A DNA stretch of 64,000 nucleotides from Streptomyces clavuligerus (GTDB taxonomy: Bacteria; Actinomycetota; Actinomycetes; Streptomycetales; Streptomycetaceae): NCBI RefSeq assembly GCF_005519465.1, contig NZ_CP027859.1, positions 620,001 to 684,000 on the forward strand, written 5' to 3'. Shown one piece after another: positions 6,045-64,000 of the stretch (the first letter of the stretch is position 1; each line of letters starts with the position of its first letter). A program made the translations under genes and the position numbers. The notes under the pieces are model-generated. The model did not search any database. It saw nothing but the letters and a program-made list of their open reading frames with translations, and was not told where the DNA came from.

Positions 6045-6050
6045 GCGCCG

Positions 6051-6086: not shown

Positions 6087-6092
6087 ACCGCC

Positions 6093-9847: not shown

Positions 9848-9911
9848 GGCCGGACCTCGAAGCCCGCCACGGTCGCGGGGGTCGGCGGGGCGTATCCCTC
9901 GAAGGCGGTGA

Positions 9912-10529: not shown

Positions 10530-11396
10530 TCACTCCCCGGTGGCGGCGGGGCCCAGCTCCCACACGGTGACGCACGGGGGACCCGGCCGGACCGGGTCGG
10601 TGAAGGTGTGGACGAAGGCCGTGGTGCCGGGTCCGGTGGCCGGGGTCAGCAGGCGGGTGGTGATGCGGCAGGTGTCGAAGAGGTACATCGCACGGTGGAA
10701 GACCGCTCCGACGGCGCGGAGGGGGTGGGCGGCGCCGGCGCGCCGGACCGGGGCGGGTACCGCGGGGTCCGTGAAGAGGCGTTCGCGGGCGGTCGTGGCC
10801 ACTTCGACGACCTCGCTGAACGACCACTGGTCGGCGAGCTCGCAGTGGCTGCGGCAGAGCGTGACCTCGTGGCCGGGGGCCCGGAACAGCTCCGTCCCCT
10901 CGGGCAGGGCGGCTGCCCGCGCGATCGCCGCGCGGTCCGGCGCGTAGATCTCGTCCGGGCGGAAGGCGCGGAACAGCGGACCGGGCAGGGCGCCCGGCTC
11001 CGCGCTCAGGGCCTCGGTCTCCGCGACGGTGACGACCCTCAGGGCCGCGTGGAGCGACCCCACCGGCCGCACCTCGTCCGGGTGGCCGTACCGGAGGGAG
11101 GTGATCTCGGCCGTCACCCGGAGGTACGTGGCCGATTCGCTCACCGCGACCGCGCCGGTGATCTGCAAGGAGTCGGCGTCGGCGAAGCGCACGGACGGCT
11201 CCGCGTAGGTGAGGTGGACGGTGCTGAAGACGAACGCCGTGCGGTGCTCGTACATCAGGCGGGAGTAGGGCACCAGATGCTCGGCGAGCCACCGGGCGAG
11301 GGTGGTCATGACCATTCCCAGCAGCACTCGGGGGCGCAACTGCTCCGGTCCGAACTGGGTGGGGTCGGTGGGGTGGTGGAAGGTGACCGTGCGCAC
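10530..11396 (-). CDS. Hotdog-like protein of unknown function
   Basis: The 288-residue protein starts at GTG 11396. Its ribosome site GGGAGG overlaps the stop region of the upstream sulfur-carrier gene, so the two are translationally coupled. Segments such as VHLTYAEPSVRFADADSL and ATYLRVTAEITSLRYG resemble strands of hotdog-fold acyl-thioester enzymes. The length would allow a double hotdog as in LnmK-type biosynthetic proteins. No catalytic residue can be assigned and the family is not securely recognised. The operon context (acyl-CoA dehydrogenase, sulfur carrier) supports an acyl-thioester substrate. Confidence 0.6.
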   Translation of the reverse strand: MRTVTFHHPTDPTQFGPEQLRPRVLLGMVMTTLARWLAEHLVPYSRLMYEHRTAFVFSTVHLTYAEPSVRFADADSLQITGAVAVSESATYLRVTAEITSLRYGHPDEVRPVGSLHAALRVVTVAETEALSAEPGALPGPLFRAFRPDEIYAPDRAAIARAAALPEGTELFRAPGHEVTLCRSHCELADQWSFSEVVEVATTARERLFTDPAVPAPVRRAGAAHPLRAVGAVFHRAMYLFDTCRITTRLLTPATGPGTTAFVHTFTDPVRPGPPCVTVWELGPAATGE

Positions 11397-11400
11397 CGCG

Positions 11401-11667
11401 TCAGCCTCCCGCGATGGCTGTCAGGAACTCGACGCTGTCGCTGTCGGCGAGGGGCGTGGCCAGGTCGGCCGCCCCGACCAGCTCCCCGTTGACGAAGACG
11501 CGGTGGGACCGCCGGATGCCGCCCTCTCCGTCGCGCAGGACGGTGCGCAGCCTCGGGTGACGGCCCTCGACCTGGTCGAGGGCCTCCCCCAGGGTGGCGG
11601 CGTCCACTTCGATGGTCCGCTGGTAGTCGACGAGCCGGAGCAGCAGCCCGGAGAAACAGAGGGTCAT
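11401..11667 (-). CDS. CysO/MoaD/ThiS-like ubiquitin-fold sulfur carrier
   Basis: The 88-residue protein has the beta-grasp pattern of small sulfur carriers and ends DSVEFLTAIAGG, with the C-terminal Gly-Gly that is adenylated and converted to a thiocarboxylate. VFVNGELV before the last strand resembles CysO and MoaD. The start MTLCFSG (11667) was chosen by alignment to such proteins. An ATG seven codons upstream (11688) is possible, and neither has an ideal ribosome site. It lies between an acyl-CoA dehydrogenase and a hotdog-like protein, not beside moa, thi or cysM genes, so a dedicated role in specialised metabolism is likely (inference). Confidence 0.8.
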   Translation of the reverse strand: MTLCFSGLLLRLVDYQRTIEVDAATLGEALDQVEGRHPRLRTVLRDGEGGIRRSHRVFVNGELVGAADLATPLADSDSVEFLTAIAGG

Positions 11668-46600: not shown

Positions 46601-48534
46601 CCACCACCACGGATGTCACCCGCTCGGTCGACCTCTCCCTGACCAAGGCCGGACCCTCGGCGGTGACCGTGGGGGACGGAGTCTCCTACGCGATCACGGT
46701 GACGAACAACGGACCGTCGGACTCCACCGGCTGGACCGTCACCGACCCCATCCCGGCCGGACTCAACAACGCCGCGACCACCACCCCCGGCTGCACGATC
46801 AGCGGCGGAACGCTGACCTGCACCGGCGGCGCACTCGCCGTCGGCGACAGTGTGGAGATCAGCCTCACCGGCACGGCGACGGCCGTCGGCACGATCACCA
46901 ACACCGCCGAGGTGACGGGCGACGACCCCGACCCGGACCCGGACAACAACGAGGACACCACCACGACCACGGTGTCCCCGCTCCCGGTGGCGGAAGTGGA
47001 CCTGGCCCTCACCAAGACCGGCCCGGCGGCCGTCTCCCCCGGGGGCACGGTGACGTACACCATCACCGTCACCAACAACGGGCCCGACCCCTCCACCGGC
47101 TGGACGGTGACCGACCCGATCCCGGCCGGGCTGAGCGACGCGGCCACCACCACCCCCGGCTGTTCGATCACGGGCGGAACGCTCACCTGCACCGGCGGTG
47201 CCCTGGCGGTCGGTGACAGCACCACCATCACCCTGACCGGCACGGCCTCGGCGAGCGTCAGCCGGATCGTCAACACCGCCACGGTGGAGGGCGACGACTC
47301 CGATCCCGACCCCGACAACAACGAGGACACCACCACGACGAACGTGGGCCGGTCGGCCGACCTCGCCGTGGCCAAGACCGGACCCGCGTCCGTGGACGCG
47401 GGCGGCACCGTCTCCTACACCATCACCGTCACCAACAACGGACCCTCCGACTCCACCGGCTGGACACTGACCGACCTGCTCCCCGCCGGACTGAACAACG
47501 CCGCGACCACCACCCCCGGCTGTGCCATCAGCGGCGGAACGCTGACCTGCACCGGCGGCGCACTCGCCGTCGGCGACAGCGTGCGGATCGGCCTCACCGG
47601 CACGGCGGCGCCGAACGCGACCCGGATCGTCAACACCGTGGAGGTCACCGGCGACGACCCCGACCCGGACCCCGACAACAACACCGACACCACGACCACG
47701 GACGTCACCCCGCCGCCACCGGTGGAAGCGGACCTGGCGGTGTCCAAGACGGGACCGGCGTCGGTGGACCCCGGCGGCCGGATCAGCTATACGATCACCG
47801 TGACGAACAACGGCCCCGGCGACTCCTCCGGGTGGACGCTGACCGACGCGATTCCCGCCCAGATCCAGAACCCGGTCACGACCAGTGCCGGATGCGGGAT
47901 CGGCTCCGGGAGGCTCACCTGCGTCGGCGGGCCACTGCCCGTCGGGGAGAGCGTCAGGGTGACGGTGTCCGGCACGGTCGCCGACGACGCCACCGGCACC
48001 ATCGTCAACACCGTACGGGTGACGGGCGATGACCCCGACCCCGACCCGGGGAACAACGAGGACACCTCCGACACGCCCGTCAACGGCCGCCCGGGGCTGA
48101 CCATCGTCAAGAAGCAGAACGGCCCCGCCACCGTGAAGGCGGGAGAGGCGGTCGAGTACACCATCACGGTGACCAACACCGGCGGCACCAGCTACACCGC
48201 CGCCGACCCCGCCTCGTTCACCGACGATCTGACCGGTCTGCTGGACGACGCCCGTTACAACGGGGACGCCGCCGCCACCCGCGGCACCGTCAGCTACGAC
48301 GAGCCGGTCCTGAGCTGGAGCGGGGCCCTCGCACCCGGTGAGAGCGCGATGATCACCTTCTCGGTCACCACATACAGCCGGGCCTTCGGGGATCTGAAGC
48401 TGCTCAACACCGTGGTCTCCGACACCCCCGGCACCAACTGTCCGCCGCGCGGTGACGACCCCCGTTGCACCACGAGCGGAACGGTCAAGCCCAAGGACAA
48501 GGAGAAGAGGGCGAAGGAGGAGCGCGCCGCCTGA
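43690..48534 (+). CDS. Giant secreted DUF11-repeat surface protein
   Basis: The 1,614-residue protein has a signal peptide (cleavage near GTAHAAAA). An N-terminal domain (about 45-275) begins YSEDFENGTGQTP and looks like a beta-sandwich. About ten DUF11-type immunoglobulin-like repeats follow. The later ones share ITVTNNGPDDSTGWTVTDPI and end in DDPDPDPDNNTDTTTT linkers. The C-terminus (KPKDKEKRAKEERAA) is charged and lacks an LPxTG anchor, so attachment would be by charge or not at all. An adhesin or stalk role is inferred. AAAGGAG precedes ATG 43690. It is a single-gene unit. Confidence 0.87.
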   Translation: MRGSPRRGRRLGALFSTGLVLGAHLVALGVALPPAGTAHAAAAPGAPGLPQGPSAVYSEDFENGTGQTPILLSAYTGAPPVNAKYTAAPAWIDAAHCNGIILDQSGSNNAACQNQNATAMAELKYMANVLGRVVGSATPANNHAVSAYTDGANPGANKVEIQTVNAIPLSTSDRFITFSVDVAAVNCGVSAPLLNFFLTGAGPDIPASDQAINPCTDPRSSTYNVGPRPIQAGSFASDSSVFFTGSAVGVKMTNANGSGLGNDHAYDNLRILDVTPQLDKGFSPASIPQGGVSTLTFTVTNTSELAEKNGFSFSDNLPSGVTVAATPNAATTCGSASLTAVAGTGVVGLSGGVLAAGATSCTFTVDVTSNTPGTYVNEPADITVSGVDPPDPATLTVTVPGSPTIVKSADAATFATGDVITYSFVVTNTAPATLDAIAVTDTGPGSPAVSCPSTSLAAGASMTCMATYTARATDAANGVITDTASVTGTVNGNEVSGTSNEVDIPLRSLTVTKSADQDSFSGAGETIVYVFRVTNNGQVPLTNLQVTDNGPGTPEVSCPNTPLAPGATVNCTATYTTTTADVTAGSITDTGQATGTAPDGELAQDTSNTVTIPYVAPQADLALTKDGPAAVNPGGEIAYELTITNNGPDDSTGWTVTDPIPAGLNNAATTTPGCAISAGTLTCVGGALPVGDSTTVELTGTAAPGATSVTNTATVTGDDPDPDPDNNTDTTTTDITTAAVDLALTKTGPAAVGPGDTVTYTITVTNNGPDDSTGWTVTDPIPAGLTGATTSTPGCSITGGTLTCTGGALAVGDSTTITLTGTAAPGTAAIENTATVEGDDPDPNPDNNTDTTTTDVTPSADLAIVKTGPATVTADGQVSYTITVTNNGPSDSTGWTVTDPIPAGLNNAATTTPGCAISGGTLTCTGGALDVGDSTSITFTGTAAPNATRVVNTVTVEGNDPDPDPDNNESTTTTDVTRSVDLSLTKAGPSAVTVGDGVSYAITVTNNGPSDSTGWTVTDPIPAGLNNAATTTPGCTISGGTLTCTGGALAVGDSVEISLTGTATAVGTITNTAEVTGDDPDPDPDNNEDTTTTTVSPLPVAEVDLALTKTGPAAVSPGGTVTYTITVTNNGPDPSTGWTVTDPIPAGLSDAATTTPGCSITGGTLTCTGGALAVGDSTTITLTGTASASVSRIVNTATVEGDDSDPDPDNNEDTTTTNVGRSADLAVAKTGPASVDAGGTVSYTITVTNNGPSDSTGWTLTDLLPAGLNNAATTTPGCAISGGTLTCTGGALAVGDSVRIGLTGTAAPNATRIVNTVEVTGDDPDPDPDNNTDTTTTDVTPPPPVEADLAVSKTGPASVDPGGRISYTITVTNNGPGDSSGWTLTDAIPAQIQNPVTTSAGCGIGSGRLTCVGGPLPVGESVRVTVSGTVADDATGTIVNTVRVTGDDPDPDPGNNEDTSDTPVNGRPGLTIVKKQNGPATVKAGEAVEYTITVTNTGGTSYTAADPASFTDDLTGLLDDARYNGDAAATRGTVSYDEPVLSWSGALAPGESAMITFSVTTYSRAFGDLKLLNTVVSDTPGTNCPPRGDDPRCTTSGTVKPKDKEKRAKEERAA
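45541..48060 (+). repeat. Array of about seven ~360-bp DUF11 repeats
   Basis: Units of roughly 360 bases recur, with the segment encoding NNGPxxSTGWTVTDPIPAGL near 45620, 45982, 46342, 46702, 47072, 47432 and 47804. Several neighbouring units are nearly identical in DNA. Unit number could change by recombination. Confidence 0.85.
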
Positions 48535-52325: not shown

Positions 52326-54533
52326 TCAGCCGCAGCCCGCCTCGGTGAGGAGTTGTGGGGAGCGCGGCACGGTCAGCACCGCGCCGACCCGCAGAACGTC
52401 CCGTTCGTCCAGCTCGTTCTCCGTCCGGAGCCATGCGACGGTGGTGCCGTACCGGCAGGCGATGCCGTGCAGGGTGTCACCCGGCCGCACCGGGACGCGG
52501 CGGGGGAACAGATCGCCGTACCGCAGCGCCGGGGAGCGCCAGGAGGGCGCGCGGTCGGCCGAGGTCGAGGGCCCTGGCAGCGGCACCCGCCCGGTGAGAC
52601 CCGGTAGGGAAGTGGCGTCCGGTACCGGTGTGGTCCCCGGGGCGGGGAAGGCACCCGTCCAGGGGCCCCCGCTCGGCGGCGCCCACGGCAGCACCGGGCA
52701 GCCCACCGCGCCGCCCGTCCGGCCCGACGGATAGGGGTCCGACCAGTCGGCCCTGACCAGCATCACCCCCCACAGCGCGAACAGGACGAGCAGCGTGCCG
52801 AAGGTGAACCGGCCCACGCTCTTCTGACGGCGCAACTCCTCGGCCACGAACTCCGGTACCCGCCGTGCGGGCCGCCCGCCCATGGTGCGCCCCGCCGGGG
52901 CGGACACCGTACGCAGCGCCAGCGGAACGGGAGCCTCGACCTCCAGGCCGAGCCGGGCCAGCTCACGGCGGAGGCCGCGCACCCCCGCCGGGGTCCGGGC
53001 GGCGGCCCGCGTCAGTTCCTCCAGCACCCGGCCCGAACCCCGGTGGCAGTCGAGCCGGTACCCCTCGGTCCAACTCAGCGACCAGCGCGCCAGACCGGCC
53101 CCCGCCAGCGCCTGCCCGGTCAGCGCGTACAGCGCCTCCGCCACCTGCTCCCCGGGGTCGGGCGCGTCCGTGAACCGCCGGATCAACTCCCCCCGTTCAT
53201 CACGCTCTCCGCGTCCATCACGTTCACCACGTTCACCGGGGGCTATGCGTTCCAGCAGGTCCAGCACTGTGCCGAGGGTCGGCAGCGCGGTCACGCCGAC
53301 GCCGCGCGCCGCGTCCAGCAGCAGGCTCGCCGGTTCGATCGCGAACGCCTCGGCGGCCAGGTCGGCCCATCGCTCCCGGGGCAGCGCGGTCGACCCGGTC
53401 CGCGACTCGGCGAGCAGCCGCCGTTCCACCCGGGCCACCGGCGCCGGGCCGGCCACCGGCGGCGGACCGCAGGTGGCGGCGGACCGCGGCGGACCGCCGG
53501 TCCGCGCCTCGATCAGGGCCAGCCGCCGGACCAGCGGCGGATGGGAGTCCAGCGGGGAGCCGCCCGACTCGACCGGGTGCGCGCGCCGCTCGGCCAGCCG
53601 CTCCCCGACCTCCGGGTCCTCCAGCATCGCGGTGAACGTCCCGAAGACGTCCTCGGGGACGAATCCGAGCCCCTGGACGGGCCGCAGAAAGCGGTCGAGG
53701 AAACCGTTCCAGGCGAGGTCGAGCGCGTGCACGGTGCGCAGCGCCCCGGCGGTGGCCGCCGGGCCCGCCACGGCGACGGCCTCGGCGTCCGCCTCCAGTT
53801 CCTGACGGCGCCGGACCGCGAGGGTCAGCCGCAGGTAGAGCGCGGCGTAGACGGCGATCACCCCGTGGAAGAGCCCGGCGTAGCCGAGGACGCCCCGCCC
53901 GCCCGCCTCGGTCATCCGGAGCCGGAAGAGGGTGGAGCGCAGCGACTCCGCCCCCCGGTAGGAGATCGCTCCGAAGCGGGTGTGGCGGCCCGCGTAGTGG
54001 CCCAGTTCATGGGCGAGCACCGCGCGCAGCTCGGCCGGTTCCACTCCGTTCAGCAGCGGCACGCCGAGATACATCGTCCGCTCGCCGACGATCAGTCCGA
54101 GCATGCTCGACTCCTCCGACACCGAGGCGTTGACCTCGGACGTCAGCAGGATGCGGCCCGGCGGCCGGGTGCCCAGGCGTTCGGCCAGCTCCTCGACCAG
54201 CCGCCACAGGCCGGGCGCGTCGGCACGGCGCAGGAGTACCGCGCCGGGGGGCGCGTCGGCGACCCGGCTGACCGTCATCAGCCCGTACCCGAGCGCGAAT
54301 CCGGCCGGGACGCAGCCGCCGACGACGAGCGCCCAGCTTCCGACGCGGGTGGGGGTCTCCACCATGCCCCACAGGGTGACCGCGACGAATCCCGCGTCGA
54401 TGAGGAGCAGGGTGCAGACCATGACATAGAAACCGGCCAGCAGGGTCACGGCCAGCAGTCCGCGCACTCCGCCCAGGAGCGCGCGCACGGCCGCTCCGCC
54501 GCTCCCCGCCGCCGCTTCCTCCCTCACGGTCAC
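52326..54533 (-). CDS. Membrane M48 metalloprotease with C-terminal LysM domain
   Basis: The 735-residue protein starts at GTG 54533, overlapping the sigma-factor stop (GTGA). Membrane helices lie at about 25-85 and another near 600 (LLVLFALWGVMLV). AVLAHELGHYAGRH carries the zinc HExxH motif near residue 172. The third ligand region is RRRQELEADAEAVAVA, as in HtpX/Ste24-type M48 peptidases. After a Pro-rich spacer, VRPGDTLHGIACRYGTTVAW forms a LysM domain that would bind peptidoglycan outside. It is co-expressed with an ECF sigma factor, so it may be part of an envelope-stress response. Confidence 0.87.
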   Translation of the reverse strand: MTVREEAAAGSGGAAVRALLGGVRGLLAVTLLAGFYVMVCTLLLIDAGFVAVTLWGMVETPTRVGSWALVVGGCVPAGFALGYGLMTVSRVADAPPGAVLLRRADAPGLWRLVEELAERLGTRPPGRILLTSEVNASVSEESSMLGLIVGERTMYLGVPLLNGVEPAELRAVLAHELGHYAGRHTRFGAISYRGAESLRSTLFRLRMTEAGGRGVLGYAGLFHGVIAVYAALYLRLTLAVRRRQELEADAEAVAVAGPAATAGALRTVHALDLAWNGFLDRFLRPVQGLGFVPEDVFGTFTAMLEDPEVGERLAERRAHPVESGGSPLDSHPPLVRRLALIEARTGGPPRSAATCGPPPVAGPAPVARVERRLLAESRTGSTALPRERWADLAAEAFAIEPASLLLDAARGVGVTALPTLGTVLDLLERIAPGERGERDGRGERDERGELIRRFTDAPDPGEQVAEALYALTGQALAGAGLARWSLSWTEGYRLDCHRGSGRVLEELTRAAARTPAGVRGLRRELARLGLEVEAPVPLALRTVSAPAGRTMGGRPARRVPEFVAEELRRQKSVGRFTFGTLLVLFALWGVMLVRADWSDPYPSGRTGGAVGCPVLPWAPPSGGPWTGAFPAPGTTPVPDATSLPGLTGRVPLPGPSTSADRAPSWRSPALRYGDLFPRRVPVRPGDTLHGIACRYGTTVAWLRTENELDERDVLRVGAVLTVPRSPQLLTEAGCG

Positions 54534-55294
54534 GGCCGCTCCCCGAGCCGCCGGGCGAGCGCGGCGCGGGCGCGCGCCGGTTCCCCCGGGTCCGTGAGGA
54601 GGGCCGCCCGCAGCCATGCCTCGGTGTCCCTGAGCGCCTCGTCGACGGGGTCGGCCGCGCCCCGGCCCGGCCCGTTCAGCCCTTTCACCCCCGCCAGACC
54701 GTCGAGGCCGTTCAGGCCGTTCAGGCCGTTCAGCCGGATTCGGTCGCGTTCGCCCCGGCCCGGCCCCACCATGAACGCCTCCCGACCACTCAGCTCCACG
54801 TCGGTCATGCCCAGCGCCTCCTTGAGGGTCCGGCGCGCCTTCGACACATTCGCGGCGACGCCGCCCCGCGTCATCCGCAGCGCCTCGGCGATGTCCTGCT
54901 GCGACCACCCGTGCAGACAGAACAGCACCATGGTGACCCGCTGCCGGGGCGGCAGGGCGGCGAGCAGCCGTAACACCTCGCGCGCTTCGGCGGCCCGCTC
55001 GGGGCCCGCCTGCACCGGCACCGGCAGATCGGGCAGCCGGTCCTGACCGGCCCGGCGCCGGCGGTACGTCTTCCACAGCCGCTGGACGGCGATCCGGTAC
55101 ACCCATGCCTCGGGGAGTTCATAGCCGGAGATCCGGTCCCAGGCCCGGTACGCCTCGGCGAATCCTTCCTGCACCGCGTCCTCGGCGTCCTCGCGATGGC
55201 CGCACAGCATGATCGCCTGGGCCAGGAGGCGCGGTTGGGCACCGGCGAAGAAGGTCTCGAAGTCGCGTGCCCGCCCGACCGGTTCCGGGTTCAT
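54530..55294 (-). CDS. ECF-type RNA polymerase sigma factor
   Basis: The 254-residue protein starts at MNPEPVGRARDFETFFAG (ATG 55294, GGGAGG). Sigma region 2 is AIMLCGHREDAEDAVQEGFAEAYRAWDRI, and region 4 contains LPPRQRVTMVLFCLHGWSQQDIAEAL. The SigE-like core is followed by a 75-residue C-terminal extension. This holds a repeated LNGLNGLNGLDGL stretch encoded by 9-base repeats, and a helical end. No separate anti-sigma gene is obvious. The small membrane protein that overlaps its start may serve that role. Confidence 0.9.
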   Translation of the reverse strand: MNPEPVGRARDFETFFAGAQPRLLAQAIMLCGHREDAEDAVQEGFAEAYRAWDRISGYELPEAWVYRIAVQRLWKTYRRRRAGQDRLPDLPVPVQAGPERAAEAREVLRLLAALPPRQRVTMVLFCLHGWSQQDIAEALRMTRGGVAANVSKARRTLKEALGMTDVELSGREAFMVGPGRGERDRIRLNGLNGLNGLDGLAGVKGLNGPGRGAADPVDEALRDTEAWLRAALLTDPGEPARARAALARRLGERP

Positions 55295-55539
55295 GAACGG
55301 GCCTCCCGCCCCGCCGCGGCGAGCCGGTCCCGCTCGGCGGCCGACGCCGTCCGCGCGGTGACCCCGCCGCCCTCGCGACGGGTGGCCTCCACCGTGCCCC
55401 CCGGCCCGGCCGCCCTCAGCACCGTGGCCATGGCGTGCGCCCACGCGCGCTCCCGCGCGGGCCGCGTCCAGAGTTCCGTCAGCGCGTACAGCAGCCGGGC
55501 GCCCACCACCACCACGACCAGTACCACAGGGTCCAGCAT
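55291..55539 (-). CDS. Small membrane protein preceding the ECF sigma factor
   Basis: The 82-residue protein starts at MLDPVVLVVVVVGARLLYAL (ATG 55539, AGAGGA). It has one N-terminal membrane helix followed by a charged cytoplasmic tail. Its stop codon overlaps the sigma-factor start, so the two are translationally coupled. It could tether or restrain the sigma factor (inference); no zinc anti-sigma motif is present. Confidence 0.7.
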   Translation of the reverse strand: MLDPVVLVVVVVGARLLYALTELWTRPARERAWAHAMATVLRAAGPGGTVEATRREGGGVTARTASAAERDRLAAAGREARS

Positions 55540-55949
55540 CCTCGGTGTCCTCTCTCCGGCAACCGTTGTCGACACCCGGATACAGCCGCCGACGGCCCCC
55601 GCGTTTACCCGCTGCCGGACATCCATCATGGCCGCGCCCGGCCCCGGCGGCGCCGGTTCCGCTGTGTGCCGTGTCCTGTACGCCTCCCGTCGGTCCTCTC
55701 GCGTACGTTCTCCGGCGTATACCGACTCGGCCGGGGGCCCGGACGGACAACTGCGCCCTGTATTCAGGCCGTTCGGCGCTCCGGCGCACTCCGACGCTCA
55801 CACCGCCCGGCGTTTGTCCAGCGCCGTTCGCCTGAAGAGGTGAATACCCGGCCCACGCGTAGTGGATCGTCGCATTGTCTTCTTAACCTCTCGAAGAACA
55901 ATCCGACAGCTCCATGTCCACCGCCGCAGAGAAGAAGAGGGAAGCAAGG
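55540..55949. other. Divergent intergenic region
   Basis: This 410-base stretch must hold promoters for the sigma-factor operon (leftward) and the EF-hand gene (rightward). No gene, strong palindrome or repeat was recognised in it. Confidence 0.4.
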
Positions 55950-56504
55950 ATGTCCACCGAGGTAAAGCACCGGAAGTTCAACAAGCTCTTCGACTGGTTC
56001 GACCAGAGCCATGACGGACTGCTCACACGGGCGGACTTCCGGGCGATGAGCGGCCTCTTCAGCGCGCTGGCCCCGGAGGGCGACCAGGAGAATGTCTCCG
56101 CTTTCGAGGAGGCGTTCGACAAGTGGTGGCAACTCCTGGTCGCCCACACCGGCGTCCAGGAGGACGGGGAGGTCACCCGGCAGGAGTTCTTCGGCGTCAT
56201 GGAGACCGGCGTCACATCCCCCGAGCCGTTCGAGGACACGGTGATGGCCATCGTGAACGCCCTGATGCGCACCCTCGACACCAATGGCGACGGGGTGTTG
56301 TCGCAGGACGAGTACGTCCGTATGTACGACGCTCTCGGCATTCCCCCCGAGCACTCCGGCGCGGCGTTCAGGCTGCTCGACCGGGACGGGGACGGAAGCA
56401 TCAGCCATGAGGAATTCAGGCTGGCCATCCACGAGTTCTATCTGAGCACGGACGAGAACGCACCGGGGAACTGGCTCATCGGCCCCTTCGACCAGCCCGC
56501 CTGA
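55950..56504 (+). CDS. EF-hand calcium-binding protein (calerythrin-like)
   Basis: The 184-residue protein starts at MSTEVKHRKFNKLF (ATG 55950, AGAGGGA). Three canonical EF-hand loops are visible: DQSHDGLLTRAD (18-29), DTNGDGVLSQDE (110-121) and DRDGDGSISHEE (144-155). A degenerate fourth is near 71-82 (EDGEVTRQEF). The four-hand layout and length match calerythrin-type sarcoplasmic calcium-binding proteins of actinomycetes. It has no signal peptide and probably buffers calcium in the cytoplasm. Confidence 0.9.
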   Translation: MSTEVKHRKFNKLFDWFDQSHDGLLTRADFRAMSGLFSALAPEGDQENVSAFEEAFDKWWQLLVAHTGVQEDGEVTRQEFFGVMETGVTSPEPFEDTVMAIVNALMRTLDTNGDGVLSQDEYVRMYDALGIPPEHSGAAFRLLDRDGDGSISHEEFRLAIHEFYLSTDENAPGNWLIGPFDQPA

Positions 56505-56583: not shown

Positions 56584-56641
56584 GTTGTCAGTGGTGTCAT
56601 GGATGATCGGCGCATCAGGTCTTCCACCGGGACGGAGCGCC

Positions 56642-56983
56642 ATGCCGATCACCAACCAGCGGGCAGCGGCCCACGCGTTTCTGGGGGAGCTGTACGCGGA
56701 CACGTACTTCCCCGATCACGTCCTCGACCGGGGCAGGGCGATCCTGCTGCGCCTGTGCGAGCGGATAGAGGCCGAGCGGCCGGTGGATCTGGCGGCCCTG
56801 TATGTGCTCACCCGGGCCGCGACGGAGGAGTTCAACCTGCTGGAGGCGGAGTTCGAGGCGGCCGGGAGCGAGATCGAGACGGTGGCCCGCGAGGAGATCG
56901 GCGCGGACTTCTGGTTCGTCGCGTCGGCCTACGGGTTCCCGGACGCGGACATGGAGGAGCTGATCGCCACACGGGACTGGTGA
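56642..56983 (+). CDS. DUF5713-family protein
   Basis: The 113-residue acidic, helical protein starts at MPITNQRAAAHAFLGELYAD (ATG 56642). VLDRGRAILLRLCERIEAER, ATEEFNLLEAEFEAAGSEIE and WFVASAYGFPDADMEELIA match the DUF5713 pattern as I recall it. It is cytoplasmic, common in Streptomyces, and of unknown function. It is separated from the following operon by 258 bases. Confidence 0.8.
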   Translation: MPITNQRAAAHAFLGELYADTYFPDHVLDRGRAILLRLCERIEAERPVDLAALYVLTRAATEEFNLLEAEFEAAGSEIETVAREEIGADFWFVASAYGFPDADMEELIATRDW

Positions 56984-57241: not shown

Positions 57242-57757
57242 ATGGGGGACGTGACACTCATCTTCGACGACGGCTCGACGGTACGCCTGCACCTCGCGCC
57301 CGAGACCGACACCGCGTCCGGCGCCGGGAACGGAAGCGGAAGCGGGAGGGGCGGCGGGACCGCTCACCCGGAAGCGGACGGCACCGCCGGGACCGCCGGG
57401 ACCGCCGACGAGCTGGACCTGCCGGAGGGGTTCGGTTCCGCCCGGCCGGTCAGCGTCGACGGCCGCGCCGCGCAGGCCCTGACCCGGAGCGGTGACGCGC
57501 TCGCCCAGGCGCTCCGCCCGCTGGGCGGTGTACTGGACGGCATCCACCGCAGCTTCACCGGGTTCGCCCAGCGCCCCGACGAGGTGACCGTCCAGTTCGG
57601 CGTCACCCTGGGCAGCGATCTGAGCCTCGGGGTGTTCTCGGGCAGCGGCCAGGCCAGCTTCACGGTCTCCGCCACCTGGAATCTCGCGAACGGCACCCCG
57701 CCGGGGAACCGGCCCGGCGAACGGCCGCCCCCTCCCCCTCGGGCGAACGGCTCCTGA
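57242..57757 (+). CDS. Trypco1 (CU044_2847-type) protein of conflict system
   Basis: The 171-residue protein opens MGDVTLIFDDGSTVRLHLAP, has a Gly/Ala/Thr-rich linker (about 22-60) and a helical part LTRSGDALAQALRPLGGVLD. It ends with RPDEVTVQFGVTLGSDLSLG and ASFTVSATWNL. This strand-helix-strand pattern (PDEVxVxFGVxL...F.V.xxW) is that of the Trypsin-co-occurring domain 1 described in predicted immunity systems. It is four bases upstream of a trypsin-like protease gene and may be an adaptor or the protease substrate. Confidence 0.8.
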   Translation: MGDVTLIFDDGSTVRLHLAPETDTASGAGNGSGSGRGGGTAHPEADGTAGTAGTADELDLPEGFGSARPVSVDGRAAQALTRSGDALAQALRPLGGVLDGIHRSFTGFAQRPDEVTVQFGVTLGSDLSLGVFSGSGQASFTVSATWNLANGTPPGNRPGERPPPPPRANGS

Positions 57758-57761
57758 CCGT

Positions 57762-59942
57762 ATGCGGGCGCAGGTGAACGACGCGCTGGCCGATGTCCCG
57801 CTGCACCGGGCGTTCGTCACCGTGCTGGGCCGGGACCGGCCCGTCGGAGCCGCCGTGCTGCTGGCCCCACGGCTGGTGCTCACCTGCGCGCACGTCGTCA
57901 ACAGCGCGCTGGGACGGGACCGTTTCGGCACCGCCCCGCCCCACCGGGGCGACCGGGTCGAGCTGCGGATGCCGCACATCGACCGGGAGCGCCCCCTGGT
58001 GGGACGGGTCGTCCCGGAGTCCTGGCGGCCACCGCGCTCACGGTCGGAAGCCGGGCGTCCGGCGCCGCCCGCGACGGGATCGCTGCCGTACTACGGGGAC
58101 CTAGCCGTACTCGAACTGGACACGGACGCGCCGCCCGGCGCCGAACCCGCGCCCTTCCTGCCGCACCGGGACGGCTGCGAAGTGGTGGCGCAGTGGGCCA
58201 GCGGCCACGCCCTCCCCACGCTGCGCGCCATGCCCCGGGTCTCCGCCCACCCCTGGATCGCCCTCGATGTCCTGGGCGGCAGAGTGGCGGACGGCTTCAG
58301 CGGAGGGCCGCTCTGGGACCGCGAGCGGCAGGGCGTCGTCGGACTGGTGGTCGCCTCCCACGAGCACCGGGACCCCCCGGGCCGCCCGGCGCCGACCGGC
58401 CCGCACGCCGACCGCGGCGCCCCGCCCGCCGCCCTGTACGCGATCGGCCTGCACTCCATCGAGGCCGAGCTGCCGGACCTGCCGCCGGTCGCGGTACCGG
58501 CCGCGGCCCGGGGCGGCCAGCAGCTCATCGGTGTGCTGGAGCAGCTCCTGCCGTCCCGGCAGTCCCTCCTGGCCTGCGAGGAACAGCTCTGCGCCCGGTT
58601 GCGCCGCCGCCCGGCAGGGCCCGCCGCCGATGTCGAACGGCTCGTCGGCCTGGCCATGGGCGTCCGCCGGGGCGTACCCGAACTCCTCGACATCGTCCAC
58701 GACCATCTCGCCGAACAGCGGAGCGACGGCCCGAACGGCCCCGCCGGTACGCCCGGCTGGCAGCGGGTGCTGGGCATCGCCCGCGTCGTCAGCCCGCGCG
58801 AACGCCTCTCCCTGGCCCGCAGACGCAGCCTCACCGCGCTGCTCGCCCAGTGCCGGGCCGTCGACCCGGCCGCGCTGCTGCGCACGGTACTGCCCTACGC
58901 GCACGACACACCGACGGCCGTCGACCTCGCCGACGCCACCGAAGCCCTGGAGGGCTACGACCCGCCGCCCGGCCAGCCCATGCCGCCGCTGCTCCAGGGC
59001 GTCGTCCACATCGGCGTCCATGAGCGCGCCGCCGGGAACGAACTCGCCGACGACCTGGACGCCTGGGTCCACAGGACGGCGCCCCGGCTGGGGGTGGCAC
59101 CCGCCGCGGTCGACCAGTTCCGGGCCGACACCCTGGCGCTGCACTCCGCGCGGGCGGCCGCGCCCGGAGGTCCCCGCCCGCCCCGGGTGCAGGTGGAACT
59201 CCTGCCCGTGCCGCCCGGGCAGCTCTTCACCTACCAGATCTGGGTGTGCGACGAGGACGGCCGCCACGAGATCGTCCTCACCCAGGACACCGAGGTCCCC
59301 AGCCACCAGGTGGCGAAGGCCATCCGGCAGGTGCTGCGCACCGAGGTCCGGGAGCACCGGGACACCGCGCTGCTGGAGTTCTTCGTCTCACCCGCGTGGC
59401 TGCGTCTCGACGTCGACACCTGGGAGCTGCCGGGCGACGCCGAGGACGGCGGGTTCTACCCCGGCATCACCTGCCATGTGGTGCTGCGCAGCTCGGAGCG
59501 GACCCGGGAGACCTACGCGGCGTGGAAGCGCCGCAGCAGCGCGCTGCCGCACGCGCCCCGGCTGCTCATCGACGGGCGCTACGCGGAACCGGCCGTCGCC
59601 CGGGCCCGGCTGGAGGTGTGCCCCGAGGCCGGGATCGTGGTGGTGGGCTGTCACCAGCGGCACCAGGGACATGTCCTGCGGCAGTGCATCGAGGCGGGTG
59701 TGCACACGGTGCTCTGGCACCGGGAGAGTCACGACGGCCGGGCGTCGACGGATCTGCTGGCGCTGGTCGAGAGCGCCGACCCCACCCAGATCCCCGAAGT
59801 GGTGCGGCTGGAACGGGCGAAGGCGATCGCCGAGCCGGACCGCACCGACCACCACGGCCACCGGCTCTCACTGCTGCACGACGGCCCCGACCACAGACCG
59901 CCGCCGCTCGCGCCCGACCCCTGGGTACTCGGCCGACCATGA
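57762..59942 (+). CDS. Trypsin-like protease with VMAP-C-like domain
   Basis: The 726-residue protein has an N-terminal trypsin-like serine protease domain (about 10-230) with a complete triad: TCAHVV (His44), GDLAVLEL (Asp113) and DGFSGGPLW (Ser180). A helical middle (about 240-420, two repeats resembling effector-associated domains) follows. The C-terminal half has VQVELLPVPPGQLFTYQIWV, LEFFVSPAWLRLDVDTWEL and VVVGCHQRHQG, the pattern of vWA-MoxR-associated protein C-terminal (VMAP-C) domains. No signal peptide is present, so it works inside the cell. It is probably the protease effector of the operon. Confidence 0.85.
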   Translation: MRAQVNDALADVPLHRAFVTVLGRDRPVGAAVLLAPRLVLTCAHVVNSALGRDRFGTAPPHRGDRVELRMPHIDRERPLVGRVVPESWRPPRSRSEAGRPAPPATGSLPYYGDLAVLELDTDAPPGAEPAPFLPHRDGCEVVAQWASGHALPTLRAMPRVSAHPWIALDVLGGRVADGFSGGPLWDRERQGVVGLVVASHEHRDPPGRPAPTGPHADRGAPPAALYAIGLHSIEAELPDLPPVAVPAAARGGQQLIGVLEQLLPSRQSLLACEEQLCARLRRRPAGPAADVERLVGLAMGVRRGVPELLDIVHDHLAEQRSDGPNGPAGTPGWQRVLGIARVVSPRERLSLARRRSLTALLAQCRAVDPAALLRTVLPYAHDTPTAVDLADATEALEGYDPPPGQPMPPLLQGVVHIGVHERAAGNELADDLDAWVHRTAPRLGVAPAAVDQFRADTLALHSARAAAPGGPRPPRVQVELLPVPPGQLFTYQIWVCDEDGRHEIVLTQDTEVPSHQVAKAIRQVLRTEVREHRDTALLEFFVSPAWLRLDVDTWELPGDAEDGGFYPGITCHVVLRSSERTRETYAAWKRRSSALPHAPRLLIDGRYAEPAVARARLEVCPEAGIVVVGCHQRHQGHVLRQCIEAGVHTVLWHRESHDGRASTDLLALVESADPTQIPEVVRLERAKAIAEPDRTDHHGHRLSLLHDGPDHRPPPLAPDPWVLGRP

Positions 59943-60067
59943 ACCCGCCCGCGAACCCGCCCGTGCGTCCGGCCCGACCCCGAACCCGCGCGTGCATCCG
60001 AACCCGATCCGAACCCGCCCGTGCAACCGGACCGAATCCGCCCGTACCCCGACGAGGAGCCTCTCCC

Positions 60068-61078
60068 ATGGCCCACCCGCCCGCCACCGCGACCGGCGAC
60101 AGCGATTCGGCTCCCGAGGGCTGGTGGGTGTTCCGCGGGCCCGCCGAGCTGCCCGAGCCGCCGCCCTGGCGCCGCTTCCCCGTCTCCCGCCGCGGTCCGC
60201 ACGCCCAGCGCCATCTGATGAGCCCCGAGGAGATCTCCGTCGTCAACGCCGCGATCCATCTGCGCCGCCCCCTCCTCGTCACGGGACGGCCCGGTACCGG
60301 CAAGAGTTCCCTGGCCCGCGCGCTCGCGGCCGATCTCGGCCTCGGCGATGTGCTGCGCTGGTCCGTCAACAGCCGCTCCACCCTGGCGGACGCGCTCTAC
60401 CGCTACGACGCCGTCGGCCGACTGCGCGAGGCGTCGCTCCAGCGGGAACGCGAACCGCTCCGGGGCGCGGCGCGCCGACTGCGCCGCCGTACCGGACAGG
60501 GCTCGGACATCGGCACCTATCTGCGTCTGGGGCCGCTCGGCACCGCGCTCGCCGCCACCGGCGGACCGCGTGTGCTGCTCATCGACGAGCTGGACAAGTC
60601 GGATATCGACCTCCCCAACGATCTGCTGGTGGTCCTGGAGGAGGGCGAGTTCGAGATCCCCGAGCTGGCCCGGCTGCCCGAGCGCCGGCGGACCGCCGAC
60701 GTCCTCGCCACCGGCAGTCTGGACCGGGTGCGGGTCCACCGCGGGACGGTGTCCTGCGCCCACTTCCCGGTCGTCGTGATGACCAGCAACGGTGAACGGG
60801 AGTTCCCGCCCGCCTTCCTCCGCCGCTGTGTCCGGCTCGACCTGCGCGACCCCGACGAGGCGAGGCTGCGCGACATCGTGCGGCAGAACCTCGGCGAGGA
60901 CGCCCTCGCGCAGGCCGAGGATCTGATCGATGTGTTCCTGCGCCGGGCCGCGGCGCAGACCCTGGCGACCGATCAGCTCCTCGCCGCGGTCCATCTCCGG
61001 GTCACCGGCGCCGACCTGAGCCGCGAGGAGCTGCTGAACGCCGTTCTGCACCGGCTGGACGAAGCCTTCCCCGCATGA
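60068..61078 (+). CDS. MoxR-type AAA+ ATPase
   Basis: The 336-residue ATPase starts at ATG 60068 behind ACGAGGAG. An in-frame ATG overlapping the upstream stop (59939) would add 43 low-complexity residues. It has VTGRPGTGKSSLARAL (Walker A, near 76-90), VLLIDELDKSDIDLPNDLL (Walker B) and PVVVMTSNGEREFPPAFLRR (sensor 1 and arginine finger). The KSD-PND signature is typical of the MoxR branch used in vWA-MoxR-VMAP systems, where it energises the switch between sensor and effector. Its stop overlaps the next start (ATGA). Confidence 0.9.
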   Translation: MAHPPATATGDSDSAPEGWWVFRGPAELPEPPPWRRFPVSRRGPHAQRHLMSPEEISVVNAAIHLRRPLLVTGRPGTGKSSLARALAADLGLGDVLRWSVNSRSTLADALYRYDAVGRLREASLQREREPLRGAARRLRRRTGQGSDIGTYLRLGPLGTALAATGGPRVLLIDELDKSDIDLPNDLLVVLEEGEFEIPELARLPERRRTADVLATGSLDRVRVHRGTVSCAHFPVVVMTSNGEREFPPAFLRRCVRLDLRDPDEARLRDIVRQNLGEDALAQAEDLIDVFLRRAAAQTLATDQLLAAVHLRVTGADLSREELLNAVLHRLDEAFPA

Positions 61079-64000
61079 TCGAGCGGCTGCGTCAGGCCCT
61101 GGGCGGGATGGGGTACGACCTCGGTGCCGCCGAACTCCTCGACGTCCTGTGGCTGGCACGGGTGCTGAACGATGCCGCCGCGACCGCCGCCACCGCCGAC
61201 GGCACAGCACCCGGTACCGCCGCGACCGGCCCCGGACAGCCCTCGGACGACGCGCTGGAGCCGCGCCCTTCCGGCAGCGGCGAGCGGACGGGCGCCGACC
61301 CGCTGTCCGGCACCCCGGCACCGTCCGGGGCGCCGGACGGTACCGGGGACGCGCCCGCCGCCGAGCGGCGGCACAGCCTGTTCGCCGCGCACACCGCCCC
61401 CGCCGGGGCGGCCGGTGCCCCGGCCCGTGCCGTCCGCTCCCCCGGGCCGCGCGCCCTTCCGGGGCTGCACGCCCTGGCCAGGTCGCTGCGTCCGCTGCGC
61501 GGCCACCGCGACCACCGCCACCGTACGGTCGCGGACATCGAGGCCACCGTCCGGCTGACGGCGGAGTCGGGTCTGTTCGACATCGTCGACCGCCCCGAGC
61601 AGGAGCTGCGGCACAGCGCCGTCCTGCTCGTCGACGCCTCGGCCTCCCTGCGGGTGTGGCAGCCGCTCGTCCGGGACGTCCGGCGGCTGCTGGAACGCGG
61701 CGGGGTCTTCCGGGCGGTCCACGTCCACCGCTTCGACCCGCGGGGCGCGAGCCGGGCCGGTTCCGTGGCCCGGTCGGAGTCCCCCGTCGTCCTCGTGCTG
61801 ACCGACGGCGTCGACGGGGCATGGCAGGGGCGGGCGGCGCGCCGGTTCCTCGGGGCGTGGGAGCGGTCGGGTCCGCTGGTCGTCCTTCCGCCCCTGCCGC
61901 GCCGGCTGTGGCGCGGCACGGCCTTCGACGCCGTGCCCCAGCTCCTCGTCGCGGAACGCAGATTCGCCCCGAACAGCGCGCTCGGCGTGATCGACCCCCT
62001 CGGCGGCGGCCCGGTGGAACAGGGCACGGGCCGGCTGCCGGTGCCCGTGGTGCCGCTCTCGCCCGCCGGTCTCTCGGCCTGGGCCAGGCTCCTCACCCGG
62101 CCCGGGGTGCCCCAGCTCCTCGACACCGTCCTGCTCGACGGCCACGGGGAGCCGGGCGCGCCCGGCACGGGCGCACTCTCCGTGGCCGTGCCGGAACCGT
62201 CGGCGGAGGAACGGCTGGACCGCTTCCGGGCCTCGTTCTCCCCGGACGCGTACCGGCTGGCCGTGCGGCTCTCCGCGATCCGTCCACTGAGCCTGCCCGT
62301 CATCCAGCTCCTGCGCATCGCGACCCTGCCCGCCGCCGCCCCCGCCGTCGTCGCCGAGGTGTTCCTCGGGGGCGTCCTCCAGCCGCTGCCGGACGGAGCA
62401 CCTGCCGCAGGGCTGCCGTCGGCCGTGGCCGGTGGCCCGGGTGAACCTCTGTACGACTTCGCGCCCGGGGTACGGGACCTGCTGGCGAGCGGCCTCGGCA
62501 CCGAGCAGTCCATCGAGGTCGTCGAGGCGGTCGGCCGGGCGCTCGAACCGTACATGGGCCGGCTGCCGGACTTCGCGGCGCTGCTCGCCGACCCCGGGGG
62601 CAGCGCCCGCCTGTCGTCTGCGGCGAGCGCGTTCGCGGTGCTCATCGGCCCGGCGCTGGACCGGCTGTACGGCGGGAGCAGGACGGCGGTCCCGGGCGGG
62701 GCCGAGGCGCCGGGGACGGTGGCCGGGCCGGGGCGGCGACCCCCGTCCGGCTCCCTGCGGTTCACCGTGTTCGGCCCTCATCTGGCCCGGCTGGGGGACG
62801 AACCGCTCGCGGTGGGCCCGCCCGAGCGGCGGGCCGTCCTGGCGGCGCTCCTGCTGCACGGGCGTCGGTCCGTGTCGGTCCTGGAGCTGCCGGACGCCGT
62901 GTGGGGCGAGGACGCGCCGGAGTCCGCCCCGCGCACGGTGTCGGCCCATGTCTCGGCGCTGAGCCGCGTTCTCGCTCCCTTCGGCTGCGTCGTCGAGGAG
63001 CAGCCGGACGGGTACCGCCTCCGCGCCGGAGCGGGCGGTGCCGCGGTCCCTCTCGACCTGGACACGGCCGAACGGCTCCATGCCGAGGCCAAGTCGGCCT
63101 ACGCGTCCGGCGACCCCGCGGCGGCGCGGCGGCTGCTCATCGAGGCGTGCGCCCCGCTGGACGGCACCCCGCTGGAGGGGGTCCCGGGGCCCTATGCCGA
63201 GGCCCAGCGTGCCCGGCTGGACGAGTGGCGGCTCCTGCTCGTCGAGAGCCGGGTGGATCTCGATCTGGCGCTCGGAGAGTACGGGGCGCTGCTGCCACGG
63301 CTGGGGCGTCTGGTATCGGTCCATCCGCTGCGGGAGCGTATGCGGGCCCAGTTGATGGTGGCGCTGTACCGGACCGGACAGGTGGCCGAGGCACTGGCCG
63401 CGTACGCCGATGTCCGGCGCCTCCTCGCCGAGGAGCTGGGCATCGAACCGGGGCGTGAACTCCGTTCCGTGCAGCGGTCCATCCTGCAAGGGCTTCCCGC
63501 CGACGCGCTGCGCACCGGCTACCACCCGGCCCTCGCGCCCCCGGTCGCACCGGACGAGCCGTCGTGGCCACCCGCCGAGGGCGTGTGCTTCGCCGTACTG
63601 GGCCCCGTCCGGACCTGGCGGTCGGGCGTGGCCCAGCCGAGCGGGTCACCCCAGCAACGGGCTCTCCTCGCCGCCCTGTTGCTGCGGCAAGGACGCACCG
63701 CCACCGCCTCGGAGCTGATCGACGCTGTCTGGGGCGACGACCCGCCGTCCCAGGCCCTCGCCGCCACCCGTACCTACGCGGCACGGCTGCGCAAGGCCCT
63801 CGGGTCAGGGGTGCTGGTGCGCGAGGCCGGTGGATACGCGCTCCGCTTCGCACCCGGCAGTCTGGATCTCAATGTGGCGGGCGACCTGGCGGCGGAGGCG
63901 GAGCGGGCGCGCACCGCGGACGATCTTCCCCGGGCCCGCGAACTGCTCGTCCGGTCCCTCGCCCTGTGGGACAGCGAACCCCTCGCCTCCGTACCCGGCC
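61075..64000 (+). CDS. vWA-like (SAV_2336-type) protein fused to tandem SARP modules, partial
   Basis: The open frame covers 975 residues and runs past the right edge. Residues about 1-45 (MIERLRQALGGMGYDLGAAE) match the start of SAV_2336-type proteins. A vWA-like domain (about 180-330) has LLVDASASL, a DxSxS metal-site motif (Asp187, Ser189, Ser191), and VLVLTDGVDG. A helical region follows to about 540. From residue 561 (LRFTVFGPHLARLG) come an OmpR-like winged helix and a BTAD domain ending near 810. From about 838 (CFAVLGPVRTWRSG) a second winged helix and BTAD begin. Two SARP DNA-binding modules on a vWA conflict protein are exceptional. Confidence 0.85.
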   Translation, partial: MIERLRQALGGMGYDLGAAELLDVLWLARVLNDAAATAATADGTAPGTAATGPGQPSDDALEPRPSGSGERTGADPLSGTPAPSGAPDGTGDAPAAERRHSLFAAHTAPAGAAGAPARAVRSPGPRALPGLHALARSLRPLRGHRDHRHRTVADIEATVRLTAESGLFDIVDRPEQELRHSAVLLVDASASLRVWQPLVRDVRRLLERGGVFRAVHVHRFDPRGASRAGSVARSESPVVLVLTDGVDGAWQGRAARRFLGAWERSGPLVVLPPLPRRLWRGTAFDAVPQLLVAERRFAPNSALGVIDPLGGGPVEQGTGRLPVPVVPLSPAGLSAWARLLTRPGVPQLLDTVLLDGHGEPGAPGTGALSVAVPEPSAEERLDRFRASFSPDAYRLAVRLSAIRPLSLPVIQLLRIATLPAAAPAVVAEVFLGGVLQPLPDGAPAAGLPSAVAGGPGEPLYDFAPGVRDLLASGLGTEQSIEVVEAVGRALEPYMGRLPDFAALLADPGGSARLSSAASAFAVLIGPALDRLYGGSRTAVPGGAEAPGTVAGPGRRPPSGSLRFTVFGPHLARLGDEPLAVGPPERRAVLAALLLHGRRSVSVLELPDAVWGEDAPESAPRTVSAHVSALSRVLAPFGCVVEEQPDGYRLRAGAGGAAVPLDLDTAERLHAEAKSAYASGDPAAARRLLIEACAPLDGTPLEGVPGPYAEAQRARLDEWRLLLVESRVDLDLALGEYGALLPRLGRLVSVHPLRERMRAQLMVALYRTGQVAEALAAYADVRRLLAEELGIEPGRELRSVQRSILQGLPADALRTGYHPALAPPVAPDEPSWPPAEGVCFAVLGPVRTWRSGVAQPSGSPQQRALLAALLLRQGRTATASELIDAVWGDDPPSQALAATRTYAARLRKALGSGVLVREAGGYALRFAPGSLDLNVAGDLAAEAERARTADDLPRARELLVRSLALWDSEPLASVPG

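What the first reader, a model, noticed from the sequence alone, without database searches (positions are those of the whole stretch)
57242..64000. Trypco1-protease/VMAP-MoxR-vWA operon: ternary conflict (immunity) system
Four genes with 4-base overlaps or gaps encode Trypco1, a trypsin-like protease with VMAP-C-like tail, MoxR ATPase and a vWA-like protein. Computational work by Aravind and co-workers proposed that vWA-MoxR-VMAP triads sense invaders and fire an effector. Here the effector is likely the intracellular serine protease. Experimental description of such systems is scarce.
Basis: partly seen in the sequence, partly recalled or inferred. Interest (0 to 1): 0.83.

Follow-up and report, generated by a model that had tools for sequence, protein, structure and literature searches.

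The report
Immune-type triad fused to AfsR regulator
On a giant Streptomyces clavuligerus plasmid, a four-gene set of a predicted bacterial immune type ends in a nearly complete copy of AfsR, a regulator that switches on antibiotic genes, so it may connect the sensing of an invader to gene activation; this reading has not been tested.

Summary
Trypco1 (57242-57757), a protease-VMAP (57762-59942), MoxR (60068-61078) and a vWA protein (61075 to beyond the window) form one operon of the VMAP ternary type predicted by Kaur et al. 2020 (PMC7159879). Pfam/NCBIfam matches, both VMAP-type MoxR motifs and the gene order are met; 13 of 13 fetched relatives show the same order (one cut inside vWA). The close subfamily is accessory: 14 of 246 Streptomyces genomes. 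Read from the genome it encodes 1828 aa: vWA core, two SARP (wHTH-BTAD) units, NB-ARC and TPRs. The last 990 residues alone pass NCBI's AfsR cut-off (1483 bits, cut-off 1430). Its DNA-binding, activation and NTPase parts are as close to the host's AfsR (75-80%) as two species' AfsRs are to each other (77-82%). So the likeliest output is a captured AfsR-type activator, with the protease as a gate rather than as the toxin. SARP unit 2 keeps 11 of 12 AfsR DNA contacts, unit 1 keeps 3. Related cores carry other tails. Neither immunity nor proteolytic release is shown here, and I found no experiment on such systems in my paper searches. Verdict: new variant of a known kind.

The parts
57242..57757 (+). 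Trypco1 (trypsin-co-occurring protein, 171 aa); predicted one long helix plus a long beta hairpin (low confidence)
   Evidence: PF19493 3.5e-18; NF041216 7.3e-12; model pLDDT 66; 0 of 68 Foldseek PDB matches at E<=0.001
57762..59942 (+). VMAP: trypsin/HtrA-like protease (about residues 1-243), helical middle region (about 250-466), VMAP-C (488-709)
   Evidence: PF20028 3.1e-36, Trypsin_2 3e-5 sub-threshold; H44/D113/S180 invariant in the 36 aligned relatives; model and fold match
59223..59888 (+). VMAP-C domain
   Evidence: genome search hit C2:679223-679888
60068..61078 (+). MoxR AAA+ ATPase, 336 aa (alternative ATG 59939 overlaps the VMAP stop by 4 bases)
   Evidence: AAA_5 8.3e-8; motifs WWVFRG and PPWRRF, Walker A/B; start discussed
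61075..64000 (+). vWA protein, first 975 of 1828 aa; gene continues to G000:C2:686561
   Evidence: 4-base ATGA overlap with MoxR
61126..62559 (+). vWA core with its extensions (SAV_2336 N-terminal region), MIDAS-like DASAS at residue 187
   Evidence: NF041121 3.5e-115
62785..63519 (+). SARP unit 1 (wHTH + BTAD, residues 571-815), most AfsR DNA contacts changed (3 of 12 kept)
63613..64000 (+). SARP unit 2 (residues 847-1082, cut by the window end), AfsR-grade DNA contacts (11 of 12); NB-ARC and TPRs follow outside the window

Best explanation
This is a VMAP-type MoxR-vWA ternary system whose effector module is a captured AfsR. Shown by sequence: the protein parts, the operon order, the intact catalytic triad, P-loops and MIDAS-like motif, and a tail that is a near-complete AfsR with an extra, eroded SARP unit in front. 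Inferred: VMAP (middle region, helped by Trypco1) senses an intruder signal; the MoxR ring remodels the vWA-VMAP complex; this exposes or cuts the vWA-tail linker, using the VMAP protease, or otherwise frees the AfsR-type tail. SARP unit 2 then recruits RNA polymerase and switches on AfsR-like target promoters (secondary metabolism, stress or defence genes). Unit 1 would act as a built-in partner or brake rather than as a second DNA reader.
For: Pfam/NCBIfam matches. The last 990 residues alone score 1483 bits against NCBI's AfsR model, cut-off 1430, profile positions 31-985 of 986. Residues 829-1801 match AfsR structures 8jke/8k60 end to end at about 1220 bits. ODB, BTA and NOD parts are 80, 79 and 75% identical to the host's AfsR, against 82, 77 and 81% between S. 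coelicolor and host AfsR; Walker A and B kept. SARP unit 2 keeps 9-12 of 12 AfsR DNA contacts in the 7 clade members checked, unit 1 keeps 3-7; 13 other SARPs of this genome keep 4-8 and its own AfsR 12. AfsR paper (abstract, passages, sections 7 and 9): the isolated SARP domain is more active than full AfsR, so freeing it from neighbouring domains can activate it, and SARP binds as a side-by-side dimer (PMC10936776). Tails change between related cores: 12 changes on a 97-protein tree. Phage infection induces actinorhodin in S. coelicolor, reason not known (PMC10276819, passages).
Against: I found no experiment on this locus. No family-wide cleavage motif: dibasic linker in 3 of 7 of the window's clade, shuffle mean 2.1. 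Among 49 one-SARP tails, R94 of AfsR is kept in 19 and T88 in 9, against R94 in 13 of 13 other SARPs of this genome, which fits inactive decoys, as Kaur et al. describe for many effectors. Kaur et al. argue that STAND NTPases in these systems act more like apoptotic ones than as transcription regulators. None of 14 neighbouring ORFs scanned matched a known defence family. In PADLOC only MoxR matched, to ATPase models (best 1.2e-5) and a few weaker ones, apart from a TPR match of the vWA part at E 0.5. No relative was found in viral contigs. The AfsR-type label needs 3 changes on the tree, but well-supported branches force only 1.
Confidence: 0.45

Rival explanations
1. The protease is the effector and the AfsR-type tail is the sensor: the STAND/TPR tail binds an invader molecule, the signal passes through vWA-MoxR, and the VMAP protease is let loose on cell or phage proteins (the first reader's view; the direction proposed for DGR-type systems in PMC10907252).
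For: STAND-TPR proteins are typical sensors (established knowledge); the TPR part is the most diverged part of the tail (49% to host AfsR, against 75-80% for the rest); protease triad invariant in the 36 aligned relatives; the alternative direction is printed in PMC10907252 (passages).
Against: TPRs are also the most diverged part between two AfsRs (58%). A pure sensor would not need an AfsR-grade DNA-reading helix and sigma-contact residues. Tails are swapped for enzyme domains in related cores.
Confidence: 0.25
2. Integrated decoy: the AfsR copy is bait for intruder proteins that attack or usurp the host's AfsR or its RNA polymerase contacts; binding of the bait trips the system, like integrated decoys in plant NLRs (the plant comparison is recalled, not from a call).
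For: The copy has stayed as close to host AfsR as an orthologue outside the TPRs and passes the AfsR cut-off; Kaur et al. stress captured, often inactive copies of cellular proteins as effectors.
Against: Unit 2 and the P-loop are intact, which a bait does not require. I did not search for intruder proteins that target AfsR.
Confidence: 0.1
3. Not immunity: a conditional switch for secondary metabolism or development that uses VMAP/MoxR machinery to gate an AfsR paralogue.
For: AfsR is a SARP activator of antibiotic biosynthesis (PMC10936776 abstract); [quoted passage not shown] one passage), with two P450 genes about 4 and 7 kb downstream.
Against: Sporadic distribution with unrelated neighbours around the window's locus and its nearest relatives and tail swapping look like a conflict system; a fixed developmental switch should be conserved in place.
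Confidence: 0.2

Closest known systems
VMAP ternary system (vWA-MoxR subsystem 1), Kaur et al. 2020, PMC7159879
   Same: Order VMAP-MoxR-vWA, Trypco1 beside a trypsin-type VMAP, VMAP-C, the two MoxR N-terminal motifs, variable vWA tail, multicellular actinobacterial host
   Different: Tail is a near-complete AfsR preceded by another SARP unit; the words BTAD, SARP, AfsR and NB-ARC have 0 occurrences in the main text held here (supplements not readable). The paper does list HTH domains, and AP-ATPases with TPRs, among effectors.
AfsR of Streptomyces (large SARP; 8jke, 8k60, 8hvr), PMC10936776
   Same: wHTH-BTAD-NB-ARC-TPR over its whole length, passes NCBI's AfsR cut-off, DNA and RNAP contacts, Walker A with T337
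   Different: Carried at the C-terminus of a 1828-aa vWA protein, behind an extra SARP unit; AfsR phosphosites T506 and S953 are A and H here
VMAP-type loci with diversified sensor domains (DGR targets) in Thiohalocapsa, PMC10907252 (passages)
   Same: Trypsin-type VMAP, MoxR and a vWA protein with a large tail (DGR 7 locus)
   Different: There the tail holds a hypermutated C-type lectin sensor and the VMAP's N-terminal domain is proposed as effector; I did not look for a DGR here
Paralogous VMAP system on the same genome's chromosome, C1 about 1,974-1,983 kb (locus L006)
   Same: Trypsin_2 + VMAP-C protein, MoxR, SAV_2336-type vWA protein
   Different: No Trypco1 relative found; vWA protein without a Pfam match at E<=0.01

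Membership tests
VMAP ternary system | VMAP-C domain at the C-terminus of the third component | tested here: met
   PF20028 3.1e-36, score 125.9, cut-off 27 bits
VMAP ternary system | Strict 5'-3' order VMAP, MoxR, vWA | tested here: met
   window and 13 of 13 fetched relatives, one cut by a contig end inside vWA
VMAP ternary system | MoxR N-terminal motifs WxhapG and PsWRxa | tested here: met
   WWVFRG and PPWRRF in the window; first motif in 14 of 14 loci, second in 10 of 14 by my regular expression
VMAP ternary system | vWA with helical flanks; [D/E]xxx[D/E]xxxa motif at the N-terminus | tested here: inconclusive
   SAV_2336_NTERM 3.5e-115 and a MIDAS-like motif found; the motif as printed was not found in the first 60 residues, where ELLDVLW stands
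VMAP ternary system | Trypsin-type VMAP accompanied by Trypco1 or Trypco2 | tested here: met
   PF19493 3.5e-18 in the gene just upstream
VMAP ternary system | vWA tail variable between close relatives | tested here: met
   12 changes of tail class on a 97-protein core tree (quick method); PNP, CHAT+VMAP-C and 2SARP-NB-ARC-TPR tails within one 8-protein clade of support 99
VMAP ternary system | Defence against invaders | not testable with these tools
   predicted only, here and in PMC7159879
AfsR (SARP-STAND activator) | wHTH-BTAD-NB-ARC-TPR along its length | tested here: met
   829-1801 of the vWA protein against 8jke_I 33-1009, 1219 bits
AfsR (SARP-STAND activator) | NCBIfam AfsR equivalog cut-off (1430 bits) | tested here: met
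   last 990 residues alone 1483 bits; whole protein 1712.5 bits over two stretches. The 975-aa part inside the window alone scores 436
AfsR (SARP-STAND activator) | DNA-contact residues of the SARP domain | tested here: met
   unit 2: 11 of 12; unit 1: 3 of 12
AfsR (SARP-STAND activator) | Free-standing protein with the SARP domain at its N-terminus | tested here: not met
   here the AfsR part is the C-terminal half of a vWA protein, so the gene is not filed as afsR; the host's afsR is elsewhere, C1:2806450-2809425

The most novel reading that the evidence does not exclude
A bacterial innate-immune alarm with a transcriptional output: an intruder-sensing VMAP-MoxR-vWA complex unleashes a built-in AfsR, so that infection directly switches on antibiotic or defence gene clusters in the hypha and its neighbours. 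This would be one molecular route from phage attack to secondary metabolism, with a pseudo-SARP unit as brake.
Probability: 0.27. Interest if true: 0.87.

Novelty: new variant of a known kind. Interest (0 to 1): 0.6.

Why it matters
VMAP-C proteins are common in Streptomyces (84 of 101 genomes sampled), yet the paper searches aimed at these systems listed no paper whose title, abstract start or passages that I saw report an experimental test of one. This member has an output with known biochemistry: AfsR has solved structures and an in vitro transcription assay (PMC10936776). That makes the logic of a VMAP system directly testable, including whether the protease or the tail is the effector. 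If the tail acts, it would offer a mechanism for the unexplained induction of antibiotics by phages (PMC10276819), and it would show that STAND modules in ternary systems can still be transcription regulators.

Tried and rejected
Conserved cleavage site between vWA core and tail: RR in 3 of 7 window-clade linkers (shuffle mean 2.1), 1 of 15 in a second two-SARP group, 0 of 2 in the beta-propeller group, 33 of 39 distinct linkers in the one-SARP group (shuffle mean 20.3, none of 1000 shuffles as high). Because related sequences inflate that last figure, I make no claim from it.

VMAP-C fold: the model has mean pLDDT 70; the VIA-align rows mostly span residues 2-243 (the protease) and the Foldseek rows shown are trypsin-like proteases, so VMAP-C was not tested. 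Trypco1: no usable fold match.

A single-sequence scan of genome contigs found nothing; the alignment scan, built on two short patterns, gave 26 loci, 25 of them Streptomyces. MoxR relatives were found in 23 of 26, vWA in 22 (some cut by contig ends), Trypco1 in 25, the AfsR-type tail in 4; the misses are contig ends or two weak relatives with only Trypco1 and the protease part. No relative in viral contigs.

Loss of DNA binding in SARP unit 1 as a general rule: rejected. Against 13 other SARPs of the genome (4-8 of 12 contacts) most clade members' unit 1 (3-7) is not clearly worse. The window's own stands out (3 of 12, and R94 changed to S while 13 of 13 controls keep R); P0007 also lacks R94.

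The protein set is limited to lengths of about 1005-3199 aa, so short tails are missed, only the 7982 candidates sharing most words were scored, and 120 of 177 were listed. For the tree I used P0002-P0100 and dropped two rows with partial tails (P0008, P0010), leaving 97. Tail classes come from the listed Pfam domains and my SARP-unit count, so they are coarse.

The neighbour comparison used an ORF filter that kept 92 ORFs, flanks of a few kb, and left out L036. No dN/dS was computed: divergence at 60-70% protein identity would saturate dS.
Full report

WHAT THE WINDOW HID. Read from the genome the last protein is 1828 aa: the SAV_2336-type vWA core (18-495), SARP unit 1 (571-815), SARP unit 2 (847-1082), NB-ARC (about 1130-1315) and TPRs. 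The last 990 residues alone score 1483 bits against NCBI's AfsR model, over its cut-off of 1430 and along profile positions 31-985 of 986. Residues 829-1801 align with S. coelicolor AfsR end to end, about 1220 bits. The host's own AfsR gene lies on the chromosome at C1:2806450-2809425. Part by part the tail is 80, 79 and 75% identical to the host AfsR in the ODB, BTA and NOD regions. S. coelicolor and host AfsR are 82, 77 and 81% identical there. In the TPR region the figures are 49 and 58%. So this is a full, well-kept copy and not a remote STAND protein.

IS THE COPY ABLE TO READ DNA? The AfsR structure paper names 12 DNA-contact residues (passages and section 7 read). SARP unit 2 keeps 11 of 12 and unit 1 keeps 3 of 12. 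In the seven proteins of the window's clade that I checked, unit 2 keeps 9-12 and unit 1 keeps 3-7. As a control, 13 other SARPs of the same genome keep 4-8 and the own AfsR keeps 12; one further control stretch gave no hit (L048). Unit 2 is thus AfsR-grade. Unit 1 in the window protein is worse than any control, and its Arg94 equivalent, kept in 13 of 13 controls, is Ser. Unit 1 still keeps most of the sigma-contact residues in its BTA part. Against a general transcription role: among 49 one-SARP tails of the wider family, R94 is kept in 19, T88 in 9 and K95 in none, though R92 in 44, so loss of AfsR-type DNA reading is common elsewhere in the family.

DISTRIBUTION AND SWAPPING. VMAP-C as a family is in 84 of 101 sampled Streptomyces genomes and in 0 of 14 control genomes; the window's genome has two. 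The close subfamily (E<=1e-80) is in 14 of 246, the window's genome included. Thirteen relatives were fetched and all 13 show Trypco1-VMAP-MoxR-vWA, one cut inside vWA. The AfsR-type tail is in 4 of them, so in at least 5 of 246 genomes with the window's; the cut one could not be judged. A second scan gave 26 loci, 25 Streptomyces and one weak Actinacidiphila, 4 with this tail. Seven loci (the window's, L025-L030) share no neighbouring genes by my ORF filter, apart from one 42% pair. Six others (L031-L035 and L037, the last with two SARP units) share one gene neighbourhood. So the window's type looks mobile, and a related type sits in a fixed place. On a tree of 97 vWA cores (quick method) the tail class changes 12 times (least possible 7, shuffled mean 45). 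The eight-protein clade around the window (support 99) holds AfsR-type tails (5), a nucleoside phosphorylase-NB-ARC-TPR tail (1) and VMAP-C+CHAT tails (2). For the AfsR-type label alone well-supported branches force only one change.

HOW IT MOST LIKELY WORKS. Kaur et al. (sections 9, 10 and 35 in their first parts, section 15, and passages read) propose that VMAP senses, MoxR-vWA switches, and the peptidase frees the vWA-linked effector. Applied here, the effector is an AfsR-type activator. In vitro, full AfsR is less active than its isolated SARP domain and ATP binding lifts that inhibition, so releasing or remodelling the tail could well switch it on. In the AfsR structure two SARP domains sit side by side on a direct repeat; here two units are covalently joined, one of them eroded. 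I infer that the built-in unit 1 is partner or brake. Steps shown: gene content, order, intact motifs, identity of the tail. Steps inferred: sensing, remodelling, cutting, DNA binding, targets, immunity. A shared cut site in the linkers was sought and not found in this clade.

RIVALS. The protease may be the effector and the tail the sensor (printed for related systems in PMC10907252, passages). The AfsR copy may be bait for intruder proteins. Or the whole may be a metabolic switch and not a defence. None is excluded. The AfsR-grade DNA-binding unit argues mildly against the first two.

NOVELTY. The kind is known since 2020, as a prediction. The AfsR-type tail is the variant: BTAD, SARP, AfsR and NB-ARC have zero occurrences in the held main text of PMC7159879, which does list HTH domains and AP-ATPases with TPRs. 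A SARP review (PMC10972967, passages) has zero occurrences of vWA and of phage in its main text. NCBI already names relatives 'SAV_2336 N-terminal domain-related protein' or 'BTAD domain-containing putative transcriptional regulator', so the fusion is visible in databases; the ten paper searches listed no paper that I recognised as describing it. They cover an open-licence library only, several listed papers were seen as listings only, and supplements were not read.

Noticed in passing
L006 (G000:C1:1970000-1986000), 4079-11612 minus strand: A second VMAP system on the chromosome: protease-VMAP, MoxR and a SAV_2336-type vWA protein without a Pfam match, and no Trypco1 relative found beside it.
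   Followed up: partly
P0009 (1285 aa) and P0011 (1201 aa): vWA proteins named as S. avermitilis and S. phaeochromogenes whose tail is a second VMAP-C domain and a CHAT (caspase-like) domain (positions checked for P0009 only): the VMAP-side domain has moved onto the vWA side.
   Followed up: partly
vWA proteins of the one-SARP group, linker after the core: A dibasic RR stands in 33 of 39 distinct Pro-rich linkers, and in the 9 TPR-only or tail-less proteins printed beside them; a possible protease site in that clade only.
   Followed up: partly
SARP domains of the 49 one-SARP tails: R94 kept in 19 of 49 and K95 in none (for example YARNA, DVRGR), suggesting inactive decoy SARPs; P0035, P0048, P0057, P0073, P0077, P0087 and P0088 keep RTRRR.
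   Followed up: partly
P0005 (1493 aa): A vWA core 64% identical to the window's carries a nucleoside phosphorylase, NB-ARC and TPR tail.
   Followed up: partly
window 60068-61078: The MoxR protein matches NCBIfam's MadB-family ATPase (an anti-phage system by recall of the name) at 4.6e-21, 75 bits, far below the 475-bit cut-off: a distant relative, not a member.
   Followed up: no
window 52326-55801 minus strand: An M48 peptidase with a LysM domain next to (and by ORF call overlapping) a sigma-70 region 2/region 4 (ECF-like) sigma factor gene.
   Followed up: no
window 55914-56504 and 56585-56983: A protein with three EF-hand stretches and a DUF5713 protein just upstream of Trypco1; neither had a match in the 13 relatives' stretches.
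   Followed up: partly
window 44047-48534: A 1495-aa protein made of DUF11-type repeats (9 stretches).
   Followed up: no
L005 10059-18437 (G000:C2 about 686,560-694,940): Downstream: a DUF4232 gene, two alpha/beta hydrolases, an HTH gene, a GNAT acetyltransferase and two cytochrome P450s, perhaps a metabolite cluster.
   Followed up: partly
L087, L088: Weak relatives (37%) with Trypco1 and the protease part only, no MoxR or vWA match nearby: Trypco1-protease pairs may exist without the triad.
   Followed up: no
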